A DNA stretch of 49,536 bases, taken from contig JAFTRV010000007.1 of NCBI GenBank assembly GCA_017462065.1, positions 1 to 49,536 of the forward strand, in the 5' to 3' direction. This document shows, in pieces, positions 304 through 30,932 of the stretch (positions are counted from its first letter, which is position 1; each line of letters starts with the position of its first letter). The translations under genes and the position numbers were made by a program. A model generated the notes under the pieces. The model saw only the letters and a list, made by a program, of their open reading frames with translations, had not been told where the DNA came from and did not search any database. Source of the stretch: Bacteroidaceae bacterium. Its GTDB lineage: Bacteria > Bacteroidota > Bacteroidia > Bacteroidales > Bacteroidaceae.

Positions 304-2556
304 ATGAGAAAATTTACTTTATTGGTAGCATCTTTGTTTATAACAATAGGTGCTATGGCTCAGAATTTTGTTGAGCCGCAGGTAGGCAGGTACTACATTA
401 TTAAAGGTACGCATTCTACAAATCCGTGGTTGACGGCAACTGTAGAAAGTGGCGGTATCGATGTTGCTGCAAATGAATCTGGCGCAGCAGTCTTCTTAAG
501 AACAGCGAATGGTCTGCAAGCTGTTTCAACAGGTAAGTATATTGGTATAAACGGAGGTCAAATCTCTTTGGTCGATGCGGAAACTCCGGTGACATTTGAG
601 GCGACCGGCACGAACAATATGTATGCCATAAAGGTAAATAACAATAACGAACGTTATCTTCATAATAACCAATCCGATTATACAAGAGAAGGTACGAAAG
701 GTGCCTCCAGTAACAACGCTTTCGGTTTTATTGAGTTTATGGCCGACGGCATATACACTATAAATAATGTGTATGATAATCGTGGTACATTATGTTATGG
801 CGTTTATAATGGGGCGGAATACTTTGGTCTTACCGATATTACATTGACAGCTGGCGGTACGAACTACGCACAAAACAACGTTTCCGTGGAAAATACGGCA
901 AACAAATATTGGTATGTGGTTACAACGACTAATGGAACATATTTGTTCAACCTCGGCAAGCATATGTTCTTGCAGAATTGCAGCCAAACAGCGGCTCTGG
1001 ATGCGAATTCTCCGGAGAAGGCTGCTTGCGGTGACGCTGTAGCTGTGCATGGGTGGGAAAAGAGAGATACTTATGTATGTATAAAGGATGGCAGCAACTA
1101 TCTCTCATTCTCTTGCGGCTGGGCGCCAAACGATGGACAGGTAAGGTGGGTCGGAACTTATGAAGCGGAAGGAAACAACCTGACTCTTACTCCCGTAACC
1201 GGTGTCGAGGCAAACTATGCAGATGCTATCGCTACAGTAAATAAGAAGATTGAACGCAATGAGCTGAAAATAGCTTTAAACTCACTCATTGAGCAGGTTG
1301 TGGCTTGGAATGCTGCAGGCATTATCGGTGAAGGTGTAGGCCAGCGTTCTTCAACTAACGAGAATGCCGTAAATGATTTCAATGCAATAGTCGAATACTA
1401 CAATGGTATTACAAATACAACAGAGCCTTCTGCAATTCAGGAAAAGATAGACGAACTGCAGGCTATTATCGATTCATACTCAATCATAAACATGCCTGTA
1501 GACGGTAAGGCTTATACATTCAAGAATGTACAGAAAGACGCACCGGCAAAAACTACATGGATTGTAGCTGCAGAAAATACCTTGAACCTTACTATGACTG
1601 AATCTGAAGCTACTCCATTTATTTGTCGCAAGCTTGATGATGGCAAATATGCATTTGTAAACAATGCAGGTAAATATCTTTGCTGGAGAAGTTCAAGTGC
1701 TGGAGGTATTAGAGATGCATATGATACGTCTGAAAAAGCTTGGACCGATGTTACTATTACTAAAATGACTACAGCTCAAAATGTTTCAGGCGATCTTACT
1801 TCAACAAGATATGTGTCTGTTTGGGCTCGTAGATATGAAGCTGGTGGTGATGGAGTTCTAATTGTCAAGAAAGAAGCTGACGGCACGTTGCCAACATTCA
1901 ATACATCAAGCGGCGATTATTGGGGAACAGACTTCTCTTCTGCATTCATTATGGATGAGGTCGAATACGCCAATAAACCCGTCTTGAACGCAGTAGGTAC
2001 AAGCCCGTTGCTTACAAGCGAGTTGCACAACACTGCAATGGCTACATTCAGCGCTCCTTTTGCGACAGTGGTTCCTGAGGGCGTTACAGCATACTATGCA
2101 ACCGCAGGCGACGGCTTTGTAACACTTAATGCTGTTGCCGCTACCGCTGCAGTTCCTGCAAATACCGGTGTTGTTTTGGTTGGCACAGAGGCCGGTAGCA
2201 TAACAATGGCTCCTGCGGCAGGCGAAACGGCGGCGACTATCGAGAATAATGTTCTTGCACATTCAGCAGGCGCGGCAAAGGACATTCCCGCAAACTCATA
2301 TATTCTTTCAGCGTTTAACGGCGAGGCCGGTTTCTATCGTACTTCTGCCGGTACTCTTGCGATGAACAAGGCTTATATCGCAGCCGAGTCACAGAACCAG
2401 TCAATCGAGGTTCGCTTCCCCGGCACAACTGCAATCGAGGAGGTGAAAGGTGAAAACGGCGTAGAGGCTGTCTACGACCTCCAGGGCCGCAGAATCAACG
2501 AGATTACCAAGCCCGGCATCTATGTTGTAGGTGGCGTCAAGAGAGTTGTGAAGTAA
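304..2556 (+). CDS. Secreted protein of unknown function with type IX-like C-terminal sorting tail
   Basis: A 750-residue protein with an N-terminal signal peptide (MRKFTLLVASLFITIGAMA, probable cleavage before Gln20). The first 300 residues are rich in Gly, Asn, Thr and Tyr and look like beta-sheet, possibly beta-trefoil or lectin-like; a helical stretch follows at about 300-395, then another beta-rich block with YAFVNNAGKYLCW. The last 35 residues (VYDLQGRRI, KPGIYVVGG, VKRVVK) match the C-terminal tail common on Bacteroidota exported proteins, which resembles the Por/type IX sorting domain. No catalytic motif is visible. The N-terminal half uses more AT-rich codons than the C-terminal third, which is repetitive in Ala, Thr and Val. 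A carbohydrate-binding or adhesive surface role is plausible but only inferred. A peptide gene lies 111 nt downstream on the same strand. Confidence 0.8.
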   Translation: MRKFTLLVASLFITIGAMAQNFVEPQVGRYYIIKGTHSTNPWLTATVESGGIDVAANESGAAVFLRTANGLQAVSTGKYIGINGGQISLVDAETPVTFEATGTNNMYAIKVNNNNERYLHNNQSDYTREGTKGASSNNAFGFIEFMADGIYTINNVYDNRGTLCYGVYNGAEYFGLTDITLTAGGTNYAQNNVSVENTANKYWYVVTTTNGTYLFNLGKHMFLQNCSQTAALDANSPEKAACGDAVAVHGWEKRDTYVCIKDGSNYLSFSCGWAPNDGQVRWVGTYEAEGNNLTLTPVTGVEANYADAIATVNKKIERNELKIALNSLIEQVVAWNAAGIIGEGVGQRSSTNENAVNDFNAIVEYYNGITNTTEPSAIQEKIDELQAIIDSYSIINMPVDGKAYTFKNVQKDAPAKTTWIVAAENTLNLTMTESEATPFICRKLDDGKYAFVNNAGKYLCWRSSSAGGIRDAYDTSEKAWTDVTITKMTTAQNVSGDLTSTRYVSVWARRYEAGGDGVLIVKKEADGTLPTFNTSSGDYWGTDFSSAFIMDEVEYANKPVLNAVGTSPLLTSELHNTAMATFSAPFATVVPEGVTAYYATAGDGFVTLNAVAATAAVPANTGVVLVGTEAGSITMAPAAGETAATIENNVLAHSAGAAKDIPANSYILSAFNGEAGFYRTSAGTLAMNKAYIAAESQNQSIEVRFPGTTAIEEVKGENGVEAVYDLQGRRINEITKPGIYVVGGVKRVVK

Positions 2557-2602: not shown

Positions 2603-2612
2603 AAACATGTAG

Positions 2613-2634
2613 GGGCAAACCGGCGTGTCTGCCC
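2613..2634. repeat. Short hairpin with GGGCA/TGCCC arms, dispersed-repeat type
   Basis: The text around GTAGGGGCAAACC and GTGTCTGCCCGG forms a small stem (GGGCA with TGCCC). From memory, very similar sequences are scattered in many copies between genes of Bacteroidales genomes; only this copy is visible in the window. It separates the secreted protein gene from the peptide gene. Confidence 0.4.
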
Positions 2635-2667: not shown

Positions 2668-2826
2668 ATGAAAAAGAATTATACAGCTCCTCTTATGACA
2701 GAGGTAAACGTAGAGGCAGAGAACATGCTCGCTGCGTCAATTATTAAAAGTGAAAATACACTGACTACCAATCAGGCCTGGAGCAACGAGAACCGTGGCT
2801 CATGGGGCGACTTGTGGAGCAAGTAA
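2668..2826 (+). CDS. 52-residue peptide, MKKxYxxP family, function unknown
   Basis: Short open frame with an ATG preceded by the AT-rich leader typical of this phylum (AATAAATTAGGAATAAT). The peptide starts MKKNYTAPLMTEVNVEAENM, continues LAAS, and ends in a polar, Trp-rich tail (WSNENRGSWGDLWSK, three Trp). The start pattern MKK.Y..P followed by a Val/Glu-rich stretch and a Leu-Ala-Ala-Ser step is one I recall from many 45-80-residue hypothetical proteins of Prevotella and relatives; no function is known to me. It has no signal peptide of normal hydrophobicity and no transmembrane segment. It follows the secreted protein gene by 111 nt on the same strand and is followed by a terminator at 2980, so the two may share a transcript. 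A precursor of a processed peptide is possible but not shown. Confidence 0.65.
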   Translation: MKKNYTAPLMTEVNVEAENMLAASIIKSENTLTTNQAWSNENRGSWGDLWSK

Positions 2827-2963: not shown

Positions 2964-2979
2964 ATTAGGTTTAAATTGG

Positions 2980-3009
2980 AAGGTACCCGCCTGTGAAGGC
3001 CGGTACCTT
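2980..3009 (+). terminator. Probable terminator of the secreted protein/peptide unit
   Basis: AAGGTACC and GGTACCTT form an 8-bp stem, extended by GCC/GGC after a C-C mismatch, with loop TGTGAA, followed by TTTGCC and later a CTCTTTTT stretch. It closes the region after the small peptide gene. Confidence 0.55.
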
Positions 3010-3090
3010 TGCCTGTAAAATGCTCTTTTTCCTCTCCTAATATACTAAACCGTAGATTGTTCCGTTATTTTTTTTGAAATATGATGTGTC

Positions 3091-4239
3091 ATGAAGTGGT
3101 TCAGTAATTTTCATAATGTAAAGTATCTGCTCATTCTTGTCGCTGCTCTGATAGCTGCGGCATCTCTCTTTGTGTCGGATATTCTTGTGAAGGACCTTGA
3201 GCGTGAAGAGAGAAACAAAATGATGGTATGGGCGTCGGCGATGAGCTCTCTTATCAATGCCGACCTGAACGAGAACGTCGCTCTTGAACAGAACATCCTG
3301 AGCAGTAATAACACTATCCCGGTTATTCTTACCGACGACAAAGGCTCAATCATCCAGTATAACAATATTGAGATTGCCGCATCAAAGGATACTCTTGCCG
3401 TACTCATGGAACGTGTCGCCGAAATGCGCGGCAAAGGGAATGTTATCCCGATTTCTGTCGAGGGGCTTGAGGGACAGTATGTCTGTTACGACGACTCTGA
3501 AATTCTTATCCGCCTTTCAAATTATCCTTATGTGCAGCTCGCTGTCGTGGTGCTGTTCTTCGTGATATGCATCGTTGCTGTGGTAAGCTCTAAGCGTGCC
3601 GAACAGAACCGTGTGTGGGTTGGTCTCTCTAAAGAGACTGCGCACCAGCTGGGAACGCCGATATCTTCTCTTATGGCGTGGATGGAGATTCTTAAGAGCA
3701 AATATCCCGACGACTCTCTGCTGAATGACATGGGACACGATGTGGAGCGTCTGCAAAGGGTGGCTGAGCGTTTTTCAAAGATTGGCTCTATGCCCGAGCC
3801 TGCTGCTGAGGATATCGTGACTGTGGTCGAAAGGGCGGTGGAATATATGAAACGCCGTAGCCCGGCAAAGGTGCAGTATGTCGTGGAGTTCCCGAAAAGG
3901 CCTCTGATAGTGCGCATGAATGCTCCGCTGATAGAGTGGGTGATCGAGAATCTGTGCAAGAATGCGATAGATGCCATGAACGGTGACGGGGTAATAACGG
4001 TATCGGTGTCGCATGACAGTTCTAAGGCTTATGTCGAGGTCGCTGACACGGGAAAGGGTATTCCTAAGGGCAAACGCAATCGTGTGTTCGACCCTGGCTT
4101 CACAACCAAGAAACGTGGCTGGGGACTCGGGTTGTCGTTGGCCAAAAGAATTATGGAGGAGTACCATAAGGGGAAAATCTTTGTCAAGAAAACTGCTCCC
4201 GGCAAGGGCGCGACATTCAGAATGGAACTGAGGAAATAA
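3091..4239 (+). CDS. Membrane sensor histidine kinase (orphan)
   Basis: A 382-residue kinase with membrane segments at about 10-32 and 147-167 that flank a sensor region of about 115 residues with no domain I recognise. The phosphoacceptor is His185 in the H-box KETAHQLGTPISSL. The ATP-binding domain shows the N box (NLCKNAIDAM, about 287-296), G1 (VADTGKGIP, 317-325), an F box (FDPGFTTK) and G2 (GWGLGLSL, 343-350). There is no HAMP domain: only about 15 residues separate the second membrane segment from the H-box. No response regulator gene is adjacent, so its partner must be elsewhere. The TAA stop forms the start of a heptamer repeat array. The kinase assignment is firm; the signal is unknown. 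Confidence 0.92.
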   Translation: MKWFSNFHNVKYLLILVAALIAAASLFVSDILVKDLEREERNKMMVWASAMSSLINADLNENVALEQNILSSNNTIPVILTDDKGSIIQYNNIEIAASKDTLAVLMERVAEMRGKGNVIPISVEGLEGQYVCYDDSEILIRLSNYPYVQLAVVVLFFVICIVAVVSSKRAEQNRVWVGLSKETAHQLGTPISSLMAWMEILKSKYPDDSLLNDMGHDVERLQRVAERFSKIGSMPEPAAEDIVTVVERAVEYMKRRSPAKVQYVVEFPKRPLIVRMNAPLIEWVIENLCKNAIDAMNGDGVITVSVSHDSSKAYVEVADTGKGIPKGKRNRVFDPGFTTKKRGWGLGLSLAKRIMEEYHKGKIFVKKTAPGKGATFRMELRK

Positions 4240-4335
4240 CGATTAACGATTAACGAGGAACGAGGAACGAGGAACGATGAACGAGTAACGAGTAACGTGG
4301 AACGTTTAACGATTAACGATTAACGAGGAGCGAGT
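4238..4335. repeat. Fourteen 7-nt tandem repeats, consensus AACGA(T/G)(T/G)
   Basis: Fourteen consecutive heptamers occupy exactly 98 nt: AACGATT, AACGAGG, AACGATG, AACGAGT, AACGTGG, AACGTTT, and a last variant AGCGAGT. The first unit shares its AA with the kinase stop codon TAA. The units vary mostly at positions 6-7. No protein, hairpin or promoter explains the array, and it is not a CRISPR, since there are no spacers. Confidence 0.9.
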
Positions 4336-4338
4336 AAA

Positions 4339-4366
4339 GTTTAGGGTTGAGAGTTTAGAGTTGAGA
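4339..4366. repeat. Two 14-nt repeat units, second copy of the GTTTAGAGTTGAGA dimer
   Basis: GTTTAGGGTTGAGA is followed directly by GTTTAGAGTTGAGA. This is the same dimer as at 2575-2602. It lies between the heptamer array and the CTTAG array. Confidence 0.75.
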
Positions 4367-4452: not shown

Positions 4453-4568
4453 CCTTTGACAATGCCGTCTTATCGCAACCCAAGCGGTGCCACGTTGCGG
4501 TACTATGCTTGACCAATTGCTGCCGGCACTGTCGAAGCTGACGCTTTAACCCCACTCTGTGGGCTTGA

Positions 4569-4630
4569 AGTTGCTTACGCTCGCAGTGAGATTACAAGTA
4601 AACTTGTATCTCGCTCGCTTACTCGCAACT
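4569..4630. repeat. Large imperfect inverted repeat
   Basis: A 62-nt sequence folds back on itself: outer arms AGTTGC and GCAACT, inner arms ACAAGT and ACTTGT around AA, with further matches such as GAGAT/ATCTC and GCTCGC/GCGAGC after small shifts. It sits between the repeat arrays and the yceD promoter region. It resembles dispersed intergenic repeats I recall from Bacteroidales, and could also terminate or process read-through from the kinase side. Confidence 0.55.
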
Positions 4631-4714
4631 TTCTCCTTTCATGCTTATCCATTAATTTTTGCCTTGTTCCGAAGTTTTTTTGTCAATTTAGGCGTTTCTA
4701 AAGAATTTTATTAC

Positions 4715-4835: not shown

Positions 4836-5375
4836 ATGGGAAGATTTAATAAATATAATGTTGACCTTAAGGGATTGAAAACAGCGTCCCTGAATCTTGA
4901 ATTTGACCTCGATAATGCCTTTTTTGGCGATATCGATGGAGAGGAGTTTCAAAAAGGTGCTGTCAAGGCCTTTGTAACAGTGAAAAAGAATCGTGACGTT
5001 TTCGATTTTCACTTTGCCTTGAAGGGTACCGTGGTTGTTCCCTGTGACCGCTGTCTCGACGACCTTGAGATAGATGTGGAGACAGAGAACACTTTGAGAG
5101 TGAAACTTGGTGACGAGTATGCCGACGAGGGCGATATCGTTGTCGTGCCGGAACAGGATGGCGACCTTAATATCGCATGGTATCTCTACGAGTTCATTGT
5201 CTTGGCGTTGCCAATGAAGCGTGTGCATGCACCGGGCAAGTGCAACCACGAAATGACGGGCCGCCTGAAAAGACACTCCGCCGAAAACGACAGCAACGAT
5301 GCTGGCAGCGAGGAACAGTATTATGACCCTCGTTGGGAAGGTTTGAAGAATATACAAATTGATGAAGATAATTAA
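4836..5375 (+). CDS. yceD: DUF177/YceD family protein
   Basis: A 179-residue soluble acidic protein of the YceD/DUF177 family, whose genes almost always precede rpmF; family members are linked to 23S rRNA or ribosome assembly. The family signature is visible as a beta-rich middle with VVVPCDRCLDDLEI (about 69-82) and an acidic central stretch. The C terminus (YYDPRWEGLKNI) is a common ending, the WxxL part being shared by bacterial YceD proteins. rpmF follows after 12 nt, so they are almost certainly co-transcribed. The exact biochemical role is not settled. Confidence 0.88.
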   Translation: MGRFNKYNVDLKGLKTASLNLEFDLDNAFFGDIDGEEFQKGAVKAFVTVKKNRDVFDFHFALKGTVVVPCDRCLDDLEIDVETENTLRVKLGDEYADEGDIVVVPEQDGDLNIAWYLYEFIVLALPMKRVHAPGKCNHEMTGRLKRHSAENDSNDAGSEEQYYDPRWEGLKNIQIDEDN

Positions 5376-10747: not shown

Positions 10748-13700
10748 ATGAAAAAACTTCTTCTTATGTTCGTGGCCGTTCTTGTATCGGTCCAAGTGTC
10801 TTTAGCCCAGCAGACGGCTGTTATCGACAGCGAACTGCAACAGGCGCTTGATAATGAATCAGCAGAGTTGATAAATGTCAATATTGTCCTGAAGTCCGAA
10901 GCCGACAAGACAAAATTAAAGGCGTTGAAAAAAACGGCCGCCAGAAGAGAGACTGTAAGCGGTGCAGTCGTCGGCGTACTTAAGAAGCATGCCGAAAACA
11001 GCCAGGCGGCAGTAATGGCCCTTCTTGTTGAGGCCGAAAAGGAGGGAAAGGCAAGTGAAATCTCGTCGCATTGGATGTCGAACGGCATAACCTGTAATGC
11101 CACAAAAGAGGTTATATATCAAATGGCTTCGCATCCCGATGTGTTGGCTATCGGATATAATAAGGAACTGAAGGTCGTCGAAAGCGTTGATGAGTATGAC
11201 GTTGAAGCTGCGGCAAACGAGTATAAAGCTACGCCGCATGTGATTCAGGTGGGTGCCGATGATGTGTGGTCGCAAGGCTATACAGGCAAGAATGTTGTAG
11301 TGGCGGTGCTTGACTCAGGAACTAACCCCGACCATTACGACCTTAAAGACCATCTTTGGGTGGGATATGCCGACACGGACGGTGACGGAGAGAAAGACGA
11401 CATGATAAATGGCTGGAACTTTGTTTCGGACAATTCAAATATCGCCGACGATTACGGGCATGGAACGCATTGTGCCGGTATCGTTTGCGGAGACGGAACT
11501 GTGGGCAATATCACAGGCGTTGCTCCCGACGCTACGCTTATGACAGTAAAGATAGTGAACAGAGCCGGAGGCGGCTCGGTTGCGCAAATGATTTCCGGCG
11601 TGGAGTTCGCCGTGGAGAATGGCGCTCATGTGCTAAGCATGTCGTTAGGCTATAAGCAGTCACAGATAGGAACAGCCGACATCGTGGCGCTTAGAAGAGC
11701 GTTTGAGAACACATTGGAAGCGGGTGTCGTTGTATGTGCGGCAGCCGGCAATGACGGAAATACGCAAGGGGATCTCAAGAATATTGACTACCCTGCAGCC
11801 TGCCCTCCGCCATATATTCACCCTGACCAGGCTGTGAATTCGGGCGGCAAGACAAGCGTAATTTGTGTGGGTTCTGTAAACTCCAATGATGAATATGCAA
11901 AAACTTCGTCTATAGGTCCTGTCACGTGGCAGGGTACCGAGTTTGGCGACTATCCTTACGATGATACGCGTATAGGCCTTATACGTCCCGATGTCTGTGC
12001 GCCCGGCGAACTCATATATTCGCTTAAATATGACGAGAACAACAAGTATAAGTTAATGTCGGGTACATCACAGGCTACTCCTTGCGTTGCGGGTGTTATT
12101 GCCTTGATGCTTGAAAAGAATCCGGCCCTGACTCCTGCACAGATATGCGAAACATTGGAGACAACCGCAAAAAAGCTCTCCGAGAAGAAGGATAATTATA
12201 CAGGTTCCGGTCGTGTGGACGCATTGGCTGCCGTAAACAGCGTAGAGGCTGAGGGCGCAAAGCCTTTTATTGAGCTTGTAAGCTGCTCGCCGGCTGTTGT
12301 CGCTCCCGGCAAAAACATAAATGTCGATTTTGAATTGCTCAATAGCGGTAATGGTGACGCTGATGAGAATGTCGTGGCAAGGCTTATCGCCAATGACCCG
12401 TATGTGGCGATTGTCAATGGCGAGCTTGACTTTGGTAAGATTGCGGGTGGTAAGAGCGTTGCTGGCAACTTTGTCATAGCCGCAGCCGAGAACACTCCGA
12501 ACGGTCATACTGCATATATGAAAATAGTCATTGCGTCGGGCGGGAATCTCCGTCATTGCGATGTGGCTGTCAAGTTTGTAAACGAGGCGAAGATTGTTTG
12601 TACTCCTTTAACGCAGGAATCGCTTGTGCCGGGGAGCAACAAGGTTGTAGTGAACGTGAAAAACTGCGGCACTGCGGCGACAGAGGGCGAAACCGGAGTC
12701 GCAATCAGTACGGCCTCGCCCTATGTGACGGTTGTGAACGGAGAGACTCTGTTAGGCACAATTGGAGTGAACGAAACGAAGATGGTTGAATTCATCGTCG
12801 ATGTTATTGACGAGGCCCCCGACAACAGCTCCGTAAGTTTCGATGTCTTTGCGACTCCTGGCAACAATGCCGCCGTAAAGAATATTATATATGAGTTCGA
12901 ACAAGGCTTTGACGATAGCGGTCATTTGACGGATGGCTTCAGCGGTTGGACAACGTTCGATGCGAGTGATGACGGCAGGAGTCATCCGTGGTGGCATTCC
13001 TCAATGGCAGGAACGCATCGGTTATACGACTTAAAGGATTCTTATTCAGGCGAGGGCCATTTTATGAGTGAGACTTACTGTCAGGCGTCGATGATTGAAT
13101 ACACGCAGCCCATAGACAATTATCTGGTTTCTCCAAAAGTGAGAATTGCCCCAAACAGCAGTTTCAGTTTTGTTGCCCGAGTTCATGGTGAGTGGTATGG
13201 CGAGCATTTCGGCGTCGCCGTCTCGGAAAAAGGCAATAGCTCAGCTGCCGACTTCACGACAATAAAGGAGTGGACTATCAATGCGAGTGACGGCAATGGT
13301 TGGATAAGGTATGAGGTTGATTTGAGCGAGTATGTCGGAAAGGATGTCTATGTTGCGATACGTCACTATTTTACAGACCGGCAATGGGAGGAACTCGACA
13401 ATGGCTACGATGTGTATATCCTGCATGTCGATGATGCCGAGTTCAAGAACGTGATAGACCTCTCTTCGGCATTTGTTTATAACAACTACAGCTATTTCTC
13501 GCTTAATGTCGAAGGCAACCCGTTGCCCGCTCCTGATGGCGTGGCGGCTACGGTTGTAGACGGCCGGACTATAGCTTTGTCGTGGACAGCTGTGCCTAAT
13601 GCTCAGGCATATAATATCTATCGTGACGGGGAATTCTTGGCGACGGCAAGCGCTTTGAGTTATACCGATACGGGGCTTGCATCTGATACTGAATATGTCT

Positions 13701-14245
13701 ACAGTGTTTCTGCCGTGTATAACGGCAAGGAATATGAACGTTCAGCCGGTGTGACGGCTGTGACCGGAAAGGCCGACTATAGCGTGAAAATCCTTTCTGT
13801 CGCACCCGGCGCTCTTTCGGTTGGAGAAAATGTCATAGAGATTACGCTCGTGAACAATGGAATTTACGAGCAGAAGTCGAGAAGCACCGTTACGCTCGCG
13901 ACAGACGATTCGTATGCCGAAATTGTAAATCCGACAGCCGGAATGAAGTACCTTAAAGTCGGCGAAGAGTATACATGCCGTTTTACGGTTATGATAAAAG
14001 ATGATATTCCTGACGGCCATGCTGTAAAGTTCAATCTGAACGTTACGGAGCTTTTTGAGGACAAGAACAGTTGGGATTGCCCGTTCTCGGTGGTCTTTGG
14101 AGACTCCGACGTCTCTACAACGATTGAGAGCCCCCGGGAAGAGGACGAAGCCGCTGAGGTGTACGATATGAGCGGGCGACGCATAGTAAAGCCGACAAAG
14201 GGAATATACGTCGTGAATGGCAAGAAGGTGTATGTAAGGCAATAA
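10748..14245 (+). CDS. Secreted subtilisin-like serine protease (S8), multidomain, type IX-like tail
   Basis: A 1165-residue exported protease. Signal peptide MKKLLLMFVAVLVSVQVSLA; propeptide region about 25-160. The S8 catalytic domain spans about 170-500 with Asp189 (VLDSGTNP), His238 (YGHGTHCAG), oxyanion Asn335 (AAAGNDG) and Ser441 (MSGTSQATP). Then come two CARDB-like Ig domains (about 505-720), a jelly-roll domain like the gingipain cleaved-adhesin module (about 725-905, GFSGWTTFD), a fibronectin III domain (about 925-1015) and another CARDB-like domain. The C terminus (VYDMSGRRI, KGIYVVNGKK) is the type IX-like sorting tail also seen on the first protein of the window. All catalytic residues are present, so it should be active at the cell surface or outside. 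It may cleave host or dietary protein; the substrate is unknown. Confidence 0.93.
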   Translation: MKKLLLMFVAVLVSVQVSLAQQTAVIDSELQQALDNESAELINVNIVLKSEADKTKLKALKKTAARRETVSGAVVGVLKKHAENSQAAVMALLVEAEKEGKASEISSHWMSNGITCNATKEVIYQMASHPDVLAIGYNKELKVVESVDEYDVEAAANEYKATPHVIQVGADDVWSQGYTGKNVVVAVLDSGTNPDHYDLKDHLWVGYADTDGDGEKDDMINGWNFVSDNSNIADDYGHGTHCAGIVCGDGTVGNITGVAPDATLMTVKIVNRAGGGSVAQMISGVEFAVENGAHVLSMSLGYKQSQIGTADIVALRRAFENTLEAGVVVCAAAGNDGNTQGDLKNIDYPAACPPPYIHPDQAVNSGGKTSVICVGSVNSNDEYAKTSSIGPVTWQGTEFGDYPYDDTRIGLIRPDVCAPGELIYSLKYDENNKYKLMSGTSQATPCVAGVIALMLEKNPALTPAQICETLETTAKKLSEKKDNYTGSGRVDALAAVNSVEAEGAKPFIELVSCSPAVVAPGKNINVDFELLNSGNGDADENVVARLIANDPYVAIVNGELDFGKIAGGKSVAGNFVIAAAENTPNGHTAYMKIVIASGGNLRHCDVAVKFVNEAKIVCTPLTQESLVPGSNKVVVNVKNCGTAATEGETGVAISTASPYVTVVNGETLLGTIGVNETKMVEFIVDVIDEAPDNSSVSFDVFATPGNNAAVKNIIYEFEQGFDDSGHLTDGFSGWTTFDASDDGRSHPWWHSSMAGTHRLYDLKDSYSGEGHFMSETYCQASMIEYTQPIDNYLVSPKVRIAPNSSFSFVARVHGEWYGEHFGVAVSEKGNSSAADFTTIKEWTINASDGNGWIRYEVDLSEYVGKDVYVAIRHYFTDRQWEELDNGYDVYILHVDDAEFKNVIDLSSAFVYNNYSYFSLNVEGNPLPAPDGVAATVVDGRTIALSWTAVPNAQAYNIYRDGEFLATASALSYTDTGLASDTEYVYSVSAVYNGKEYERSAGVTAVTGKADYSVKILSVAPGALSVGENVIEITLVNNGIYEQKSRSTVTLATDDSYAEIVNPTAGMKYLKVGEEYTCRFTVMIKDDIPDGHAVKFNLNVTELFEDKNSWDCPFSVVFGDSDVSTTIESPREEDEAAEVYDMSGRRIVKPTKGIYVVNGKKVYVRQ

Positions 14246-30759: not shown

Positions 30760-30834
30760 GGACGTTTAGCTCAGCTGGTTTAGAGCATCTGCCTTACAAG
30801 CAGAGGGTCGGCGGTTCGAATCCGTCAACGTCCA
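30760..30834 (+). tRNA. tRNA-Val (anticodon UAC), copy 1
   Basis: A 75-nt cloverleaf: acceptor GGACGTT/AACGTCC, D arm GCTC/GAGC, anticodon stem TCTGC/GCAGA with loop CTTACAA (anticodon TAC), T arm with GTTCGAATCC, discriminator A. The CCA end is not encoded. Identical to the next tRNA. Confidence 0.97.
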
Positions 30835-30848
30835 CACTTTGAAATATC

Positions 30849-30923
30849 GGACGTTTAGCTCAGCTGGTTTAGAGCATCTGCCTTACAAGCAGAGGGTCGG
30901 CGGTTCGAATCCGTCAACGTCCA
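30849..30923 (+). tRNA. tRNA-Val (anticodon UAC), copy 2
   Basis: A 75-nt exact duplicate of copy 1, 14 nt downstream. Both share the promoter at 30701 and the terminator at 30933. It reads GUA and, by wobble, other Val codons. Confidence 0.97.
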
Positions 30924-30932
30924 CGATACCAG

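What the first reader, a model, noticed from the sequence alone, without database searches (positions are those of the whole stretch)
2668..2826. 52-residue MKKxYxxP peptide gene beside a type IX-tailed secreted protein
Seen: an intact frame with an AT-rich start region, the conserved-looking start MKKNYTAP, and a C terminus with three Trp and no signal peptide. It lies on the same strand as a secreted protein with a sorting tail and is followed by a terminator. Known from memory only: many similarly short MKK.Y..P proteins occur in Prevotella-type genomes without a described function. Inference: the constant N-terminal half and variable tail would suit a precursor processed into a short product, or a cytoplasmic partner of the export system.
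Basis: partly seen in the sequence, partly recalled or inferred. Interest (0 to 1): 0.7.

Follow-up and report, generated by a model that had tools for sequence, protein, structure and literature searches.

The report
Small two-ended partner of surface proteins
A 52-amino-acid gene in a gut Bacteroidales bacterium belongs to an uncatalogued, multi-copy family of tiny proteins that mostly sit beside genes for exported surface proteins, which suggests an unknown helper in how these bacteria build their surface.

Summary
The gene is real and belongs to an uncatalogued family. Relatives occur in 36 of 44 genomes of the genus and 196 of 301 of the family. Scans of 63 members against Pfam, NCBIfam and PHROGs gave nothing better than stray hits of E 0.049. 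Both ends are under purifying selection. The tail motif, searched alone, occurs 119 times in 44 genomes against 0 for the reversed pattern; of 103 uncut distinct copies examined, 102 carry the MKKxYxxP-type start. 66 of 74 main-type copies with upstream sequence follow a protein with a T9SS-like sorting tail; a sister type precedes a fimbrillin-like lipoprotein gene in 10 of 12. In two species the N-terminal module at that sister locus is replaced by a signal-peptide-like start plus dockerin. Best reading: a bipartite accessory made alongside each surface cargo, probably acting at the envelope (0.36). Compartment and activity are untested. C39/double-glycine processing is disfavoured: no C39 peptidase in the own (84% complete) genome or in 39 of 44 of the genus.

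The parts
304..2556 (+). Upstream surface cargo: 750-aa protein with signal-peptide-like start (MRKFTLLVASLFITIGAMAQ) and a C-terminal T9SS-like tail
   Evidence: ORF; no significant Pfam or NCBIfam family (weak ricin-B-lectin-like match E 0.054); tail search of the own genome gave 35 hits at E <= 1
2464..2553 (+). Sorting-tail segment of the cargo, EAVYDLQGRRINEITKPGIYVVGGVKRVVK
   Evidence: Read; the same pattern ends 44 of 46 judged upstream proteins in relatives. TIGR04183 (type A sorting domain) reached only by 1 of 43 tails, E 0.041, not by this one
2668..2826 (+). The 52-aa two-ended small protein
   Evidence: homologues; selection
2668..2739 (+). Conserved N-terminal module, codons 1-24, MKKNYTAPLMTEVNVEAENMLAAS
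   Evidence: 3 of 72 nucleotides vary and no residue does in 4 own-genome copies; positional counts over 101 members; pN/pS 0.23 in near pairs
2740..2793 (+). Variable linker, codons 25-42
   Evidence: Alignments
2794..2817 (+). Conserved C-terminal motif RGSWGDLW (family consensus RGxWG[ND]LW)
   Evidence: pN/pS 0.12-0.13 with many synonymous codons
2979..3010 (+). Strong stem-loop about 150 bp after the stop codon, possible terminator
   Evidence: z -3.66 for window 2965-3030; not called by the consensus scan

Best explanation
The gene encodes one copy of a multi-copy family of two-ended small proteins, most of them encoded beside one surface-exported protein. SHOWN: two conserved ends joined by a variable linker; purifying selection on both ends; physical linkage either just downstream of a cargo with a T9SS-like tail (rarely a dockerin) or, in a sister type, upstream of a fimbrillin-like lipoprotein gene; and in two species replacement of the N-terminal module by a signal-peptide-like start plus dockerin at what the following gene indicates is the same locus. 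INFERRED: the pair is co-expressed; the N-terminal 24 residues are a targeting or docking module whose role can be taken over by a signal peptide plus dockerin; the RGxWG[ND]LW end is the recognition end; and the protein works at the cell envelope as an accessory in export, folding or surface assembly of its neighbour, in roughly one-to-one dose with it.
For: Family and distribution. Both ends fixed: tail motif 119 v 0; 102 of 103 uncut tails have the family start, by a permissive pattern, and the remaining one reads EKKYLAP without an ATG there; 80 of 80 ORFs picked by the N-terminal pattern in genus-type loci end in W[GSA][NDS][LIVMF]W (many of these loci had been fetched by either end, so this count is not independent). 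Selection: pN/pS 0.12-0.13 at the tail and 0.23-0.46 at the N-terminus, by closeness of the pairs. Linkage: 66 of 74; in a second family of the order (f111) 16 of 22 by pattern plus one dockerin, median gap of the 16 26.5 bp. Fimbrillin-like linkage: 16 of 19 sister-type genes, the fusion included, the other three having at most 534 bp of sequence left, against 1 of 83 main-type genes with >=600 bp downstream; a more distant member precedes a Pfam fimbrillin-like protein (PF13149). Swap: own C55 and G010; the own-genome fusion overlaps by ATGA the stop of a tail-bearing gene. T9SS co-occurrence; SprA is present in the own genome.
Against: The 52-aa protein has no recognisable export signal (over 101 members the mean of the hydrophobicity maxima is 0.99, though at least one member reaches 2.46). 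The envelope reading rests on two swapped loci, and one of these (G010) has lost the Trp tail, so the tail may not be needed there. One own-genome member lies 152 bp after an ORF without a tail (L002), and 8 of 74 main-type genes did not meet the tail pattern. 19 of 196 family-positive genomes show no SprA: 17 of them have six or fewer matches, but G294 has 7 and G053, listed as 100% complete, has 15. Co-transcription was not shown.
Confidence: 0.36

Rival explanations
1. The protein stays in the cytoplasm and acts before export: a small chaperone or regulator that tunes synthesis, mRNA stability or Sec delivery of the cargo encoded beside it.
For: No signal peptide or hydrophobic segment in the window's protein; encoded close to cargo with signal-peptide-like starts; found with two different surface systems that would share the Sec step.
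Against: A general cytoplasmic factor would not need many related copies per genome (up to 17 in the genus and 22 in the family) unless dose or cis action matters. At two loci the N-terminal module is replaced by a signal-peptide-like start plus dockerin.
Confidence: 0.3
2. A hitchhiker: the small gene is copied together with the cargo's 3' end by recombination and has no functional link to the cargo's export.
For: In the own genome the first 72 bases of four copies differ at 3 positions, and the three with upstream sequence also share much of the spacer and tail-coding DNA. The own-genome tails most like the window's are those with a small gene or with the contig ending soon after them. Contigs often break here: of 84 places 15 lie within 300 bp of the 5'-side contig end and 7 of the 3'-side end, against 1.5 expected per side. 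Tail-like repeats follow the gene in several relatives.
Against: The pairing holds in a second family of the order with very different sequences and a median gap of 26.5 bp; purifying selection; a second linkage to fimbrillin-like genes.
Confidence: 0.17
3. A peptide precursor: residues 1-24 are a leader removed at the AxS site, giving a secreted signal or antimicrobial peptide that ends in the Trp motif.
For: Small residues at 22-24 (A in 86, A in 69 and S in 92 of 101 members); short linker; multi-copy.
Against: The would-be product end is the most conserved part. No C39 peptidase in the own genome or in 39 of 44 genomes of the genus, while 36 of 44 carry the family. The RiPP survey of Bacteroidales ties such precursors to C39 transporters with GG motifs (PMC10352776, passages). 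Neighbours were not searched systematically for modifying enzymes; none is among the Pfam hits of 36 upstream proteins.
Confidence: 0.1
4. Not a gene, or conserved only as an RNA/DNA element.
For: In WGNLW-type members the last codons tend to pair with sequence after the stop (mean z -2.63 for 98 ends v -0.38 for 150 of 591 control ends).
Against: Synonymous codons vary widely while residues stay fixed. The other tail type shows no hairpin (25 ends, mean z -0.32), and the window's own 3' end folds no better than shuffles (z +1.41).
Confidence: 0.02

Closest known systems
Type B CTD cargo with its cognate PorP/SprF partner (T9SS)
   Same: A T9SS cargo gene and a dedicated partner usually clustered with it (PMC10202324, passages).
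   Different: PorP/SprF are outer-membrane beta-barrels; this partner is about 52 aa without a signal peptide, and its cargo tails look type-A-like by eye rather than type B.
Double-glycine leader peptides / bacteroidetocins and RiPP precursors of Bacteroidales
   Same: Short genes with a conserved N-terminal segment ending in small residues.
   Different: No GG motif, no C39 peptidase found in the own genome, and the C-terminal end is conserved instead of variable.
T9SS type A sorting domain (TIGR04183 / PF18962)
   Same: The upstream cargo ends with a GxY and Lys-rich segment resembling motifs D and E (the motif letters by eye; their role from PMC10202324 section 12).
   Different: Only 1 of 43 tails reaches TIGR04183, weakly (E 0.041); the 52-aa protein itself carries no such tail.

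Membership tests
T9SS type A CTD protein (for the upstream cargo) | Match to TIGR04183 or PF18962 | tested here: not met
   1 of 43 tails, E 0.041, not the window's; no sorting-domain family listed at 0.01 for 36 proteins
T9SS type A CTD protein (for the upstream cargo) | Signal-peptide-like start, terminal G-x-Y and Lys-rich end, T9SS core present in the genome | tested here: met
   (in 43 tails G and Y invariant, last Lys >=90%); SprA found in the own genome. Secretion itself not testable
PorP/SprF partner of type B cargo | Outer-membrane beta-barrel of PorV-like type | tested here: not met
   52 aa, no signal peptide, no Pfam/NCBIfam match
Double-glycine leader peptide (bacteriocin/RiPP) | GG/GA-type cleavage motif with a C39 peptidase transporter in the genome | tested here: not met
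   Residues 22-24 are mostly AAS; PF03412 not found in the own genome or in 39 of 44 of the genus; the own genome is 84% complete
Lasso peptide (NF033528) | Score over the curated cut-off | tested here: not met
   11.2 bits against 33, residues 1-11 only
Phage-encoded protein | Match to a PHROGs family | tested here: not met
   0 of 63 members at E 0.01
This small-protein family (defined here) | MKKxYxxP start, S near position 24, Arg a few residues before a C-terminal Trp, 50-60 aa | tested here: met

The most novel reading that the evidence does not exclude
A new class of dedicated mini-partners for Bacteroidota surface proteins: about 55-aa, signal-peptide-less, two-ended proteins, one per cargo, serving both T9SS cargo and fimbrillin-like lipoproteins, with an N-terminal module that works as an unrecognised non-Sec targeting signal, interchangeable with a signal peptide plus dockerin.
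Probability: 0.2. Interest if true: 0.85.

Novelty: new variant of a known kind. Interest (0 to 1): 0.55.

Why it matters
T9SS cargo and fimbrillin-like lipoproteins are main ways in which Bacteroidales dress their surface. A tiny protein encoded beside many of these genes, conserved at both ends over at least two families of the order, present in many copies per genome and missing from the protein-family libraries searched, would be an overlooked part of cargo expression, export or assembly. The linkage makes a direct test possible: delete one small gene and follow its neighbour.

Tried and rejected
Tried with little or no result: Pfam, NCBIfam and PHROGs scans of the small proteins; literature searches for the family, the motif or a small T9SS partner listed no paper that by title, abstract start or the passages read describes it; the library holds only open-licence PMC papers and most listed papers were seen as listings only. 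Order-wide searches with the narrow and the broader model found few genomes (7 and 10 of 393, own genome included), so the distribution given is a lower bound set by a short model.

Considered and rejected: random ORF; C39-processed peptide; RNA-only element; phage origin.

Limits: the SprA association is not corrected for phylogeny. In one search the members were picked by patterns that include the Trp positions, so residue conservation there is partly selected; the synonymous variation is not, and make the reverse test by the tail alone. In one search the start pattern was permissive. Counts by my patterns differ between calls because rows without upstream sequence were set aside: 13 with none and 13 with only a short ORF, of 72; 20 of 117; 16 main-type with no room plus 8 cut by a contig edge, of 111. 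The 74 include one gene with no ORF >=100 aa upstream, two with the neighbour on the other strand and five with another same-strand ORF (one dockerin; two followed by a fimbrillin-like lipoprotein; L333 tail-like by eye). In one search two rows counted as 'other' (L015, L199) also look like tails by eye. The weak order-wide hits outside f111 were looked at only in part.

Full report
What is there. The frame at 2668-2826 (+) is intact, 52 codons, and reads MKKNYTAPLMTEVNVEAENMLAASIIKSENTLTTNQAWSNENRGSWGDLWSK. It lies 111 bp after a 750-aa protein (304-2556) with a signal-peptide-like start and the ending YDLQGRRINEITKPGIYVVGGVKRVVK, and 264 bp before a histidine kinase gene (3091-4239). The window is one contig of a 2.08-Mb, 84%-complete genome. 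The 80 named relatives kept are mostly MAGs labelled Bacteroidaceae or Bacteroidales from ruminant cecum, colon or rectum; a few bear other labels (Rikenellaceae, Alistipes, Oscillospiraceae).

It is a family. The own genome has four copies with the same first 24 residues and at least two more divergent members. With E <= 0.01, 36 of 44 genomes of the genus have a match, and with a profile 196 of 301 genomes of the family, in 23 of 30 genera. Outside the family, strong multi-copy sets appear in one other family of the order (f111); weaker hits elsewhere were checked only in part. Scans of 63 members gave no PHROGs hit and only stray Pfam and NCBIfam hits of one member each, best E 0.049.

Anatomy. 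Residues 1-24 (MKKxYxxP....V.V....MLAAS) and the end RGxWG[ND]LW plus a few residues are conserved; the linker between them varies in sequence and length. The tail-coding pattern alone occurs 119 times in 29 of 44 genomes of the genus and its reversed control 0 times. I examined 114 of these 119 places (the other five are own-genome copies already seen): 111 distinct tails, 8 cut by a contig edge, 102 of the remaining 103 with the family-type start by a permissive pattern, and one reading EKKYLAP without an ATG there. Of the five own-genome places left out, four are ordinary members and one is the fusion described below. From the other side, 80 of 80 MKK.Y..P ORFs of 40-90 aa in the genus-type loci end in W[GSA][NDS][LIVMF]W, but many of these loci had been fetched by one or the other end.

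Selection. Over 77 proteins, pN/pS is 0.13 at the tail and 0.46 at the N-terminus; for pairs with 80% or more N-terminal identity 0.12 and 0.23. Tail codons vary widely at synonymous sites (Leu by six codons, Gly by four). This is protein-level constraint. In the 24-row wider alignment M1, Y5, P8, S24 and the first Trp are invariant, although in f111 the end reads for example RNSLWGDDE or RNSDWSDFEGN.

Neighbours. In the named loci, 46 of 72 genes had an upstream ORF of >=100 aa or one cut by the contig edge, and 44 of those 46 end in the tail. In a wider pattern-based set of 117 genes, 97 had upstream room: 76 tail, 2 dockerin, 19 other, far or opposite; the background for other ORFs in the same loci was 15 of 189. 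In the tail-motif census, 66 of 74 main-type genes with upstream sequence follow a tail protein. In f111 it is 16 of 22 by pattern plus one dockerin, and the gap is short (median 26.5 bp over the 16), which suggests an operon. The upstream proteins differ widely (ricin-lectin-like in 9 of 36, F5/8 type C-like in 5, LRR_5 in 1). The tails are named T9SS-like by motif; TIGR04183 is reached by only 1 of 43, weakly, although the review read here describes the last residues (motifs D and E, with Lys) as the key part of the type A signal (PMC10202324 section 12). SprA, a T9SS core protein, is present in the own genome and in 233 of 301 genomes of the family. Family presence and SprA: 177 both, 19 small only, 56 SprA only, 49 neither; odds ratio 8.2, p 1e-12, not corrected for phylogeny. 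Against a strict tie, G053, listed as 100% complete, has 15 matches and no SprA.

A second linkage. A sister type with the linker DSDD[ST]EFG is followed by a fimbrillin-like lipoprotein gene (lipobox and a TRA motif) in 16 of 19 cases, the fusion included; the other three have at most 534 bp of contig left. Main-type genes with 600 bp or more downstream show this in 1 of 83. In the census the figures are 10 of 12 for the sister type and 2 main-type genes. Three downstream proteins of the sister type were scanned and gave no Pfam hit naming them fimbrillins; a more distant member (L243) precedes a PF13149 fimbrillin-like protein over its cut-off. The label fimbrillin-like for the sister type thus rests on motifs.

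A natural swap. In the own genome (C55) and in G010 the gene in front of that lipoprotein begins instead with a signal-peptide-like segment and a dockerin (own copy: PF00404, E 1e-9; the G010 copy is 57% identical over residues 6-97). The own copy ends GAPDSDDSEFGGAHERRGTWGNLWNK, homologous to the linker and tail of the small gene that other species have there; the G010 copy keeps DSDDSEF but lacks the Trp tail. The own fusion overlaps by ATGA the end of a tail-bearing gene. The simplest reading is that the N-terminal 24 residues and the signal peptide plus dockerin do comparable jobs; that is inference.

DNA-level facts. In the own genome the first 72 bases of four copies differ at 3 positions while linkers differ strongly; for the three copies with upstream sequence much of the spacer and tail-coding DNA is shared too. 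Contigs tend to end here: of 84 places 15 lie within 300 bp of the 5'-side contig end and 7 of the 3'-side end, with 1.5 expected per side. This points to recent copying or gene conversion of a 3' cassette, and is why a hitchhiker reading is kept as a rival. In WGNLW-type members the end of the gene tends to fold with the sequence after it (98 ends, mean z -2.63; 150 of 591 control ends, -0.38; 25 other-type ends, -0.32). The pairing partly follows codon changes (own pairing better than swapped tails in 54 of 89). The window's own 3' end is not exceptional (z +1.41).

How it may work. Shown: two fixed ends, selection, two surface-protein linkages, one kind of swap. Inferred: co-expression, location, binding partners. 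A C39-processed peptide is disfavoured because the own genome (84% complete) and 39 of 44 genomes of the genus show no C39 peptidase, while Bacteroidales RiPP precursors are reported with such transporters (PMC10352776, passages). I commit to an accessory of the neighbouring surface protein acting at the envelope (0.36), with a cytoplasmic pre-export helper close behind (0.30).

What is known. The nearest known arrangement is type B T9SS cargo clustered with its PorP/SprF partner (PMC10202324, passages); that partner is a beta-barrel and not related. The literature searches made here listed no paper that describes the family (listings, plus passages and one section).

Noticed in passing
L016, L024, L029-L032, L036, L069, L073, L138 (3' of the small gene): An intergenic repeat follows the small gene and carries a second DNA copy of the Trp-tail codons, in most cases with a stop; L031 has a tandem array of several such units. 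Its origin is unexplained.
   Followed up: partly
window 2612-2634 and the same place before the C49 and C39 own-genome copies: A short inverted repeat (GGGGCAAACCGGCGTGTCTGCCC in the window) lies between cargo and small gene and is shared by these copies.
   Followed up: no
window 10748-14245: 1165-aa subtilisin-like protease with a choice-of-anchor J domain and a T9SS-like tail; no small family gene was seen in the 700 bp downstream.
   Followed up: no
window 3091-4239: Sensor histidine kinase in front of a YceD-like gene (4836-5375, weak match) and, by eye, rpmF- and era-like genes; whether it is the T9SS regulator PorY was not tested.
   Followed up: no
window 4240-4340 and 4480-4660: Simple AACGATTAACGAGGAACGAGG-type repeats and a palindromic repeat that resembles by eye the one 3' of the C39 and C66 copies.
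   Followed up: no
window 30760-30924: Two tandem tRNA-Val (tac) genes.
   Followed up: no
L201/L203 (G433:C28): Two family members in tandem after one cargo gene.
   Followed up: no
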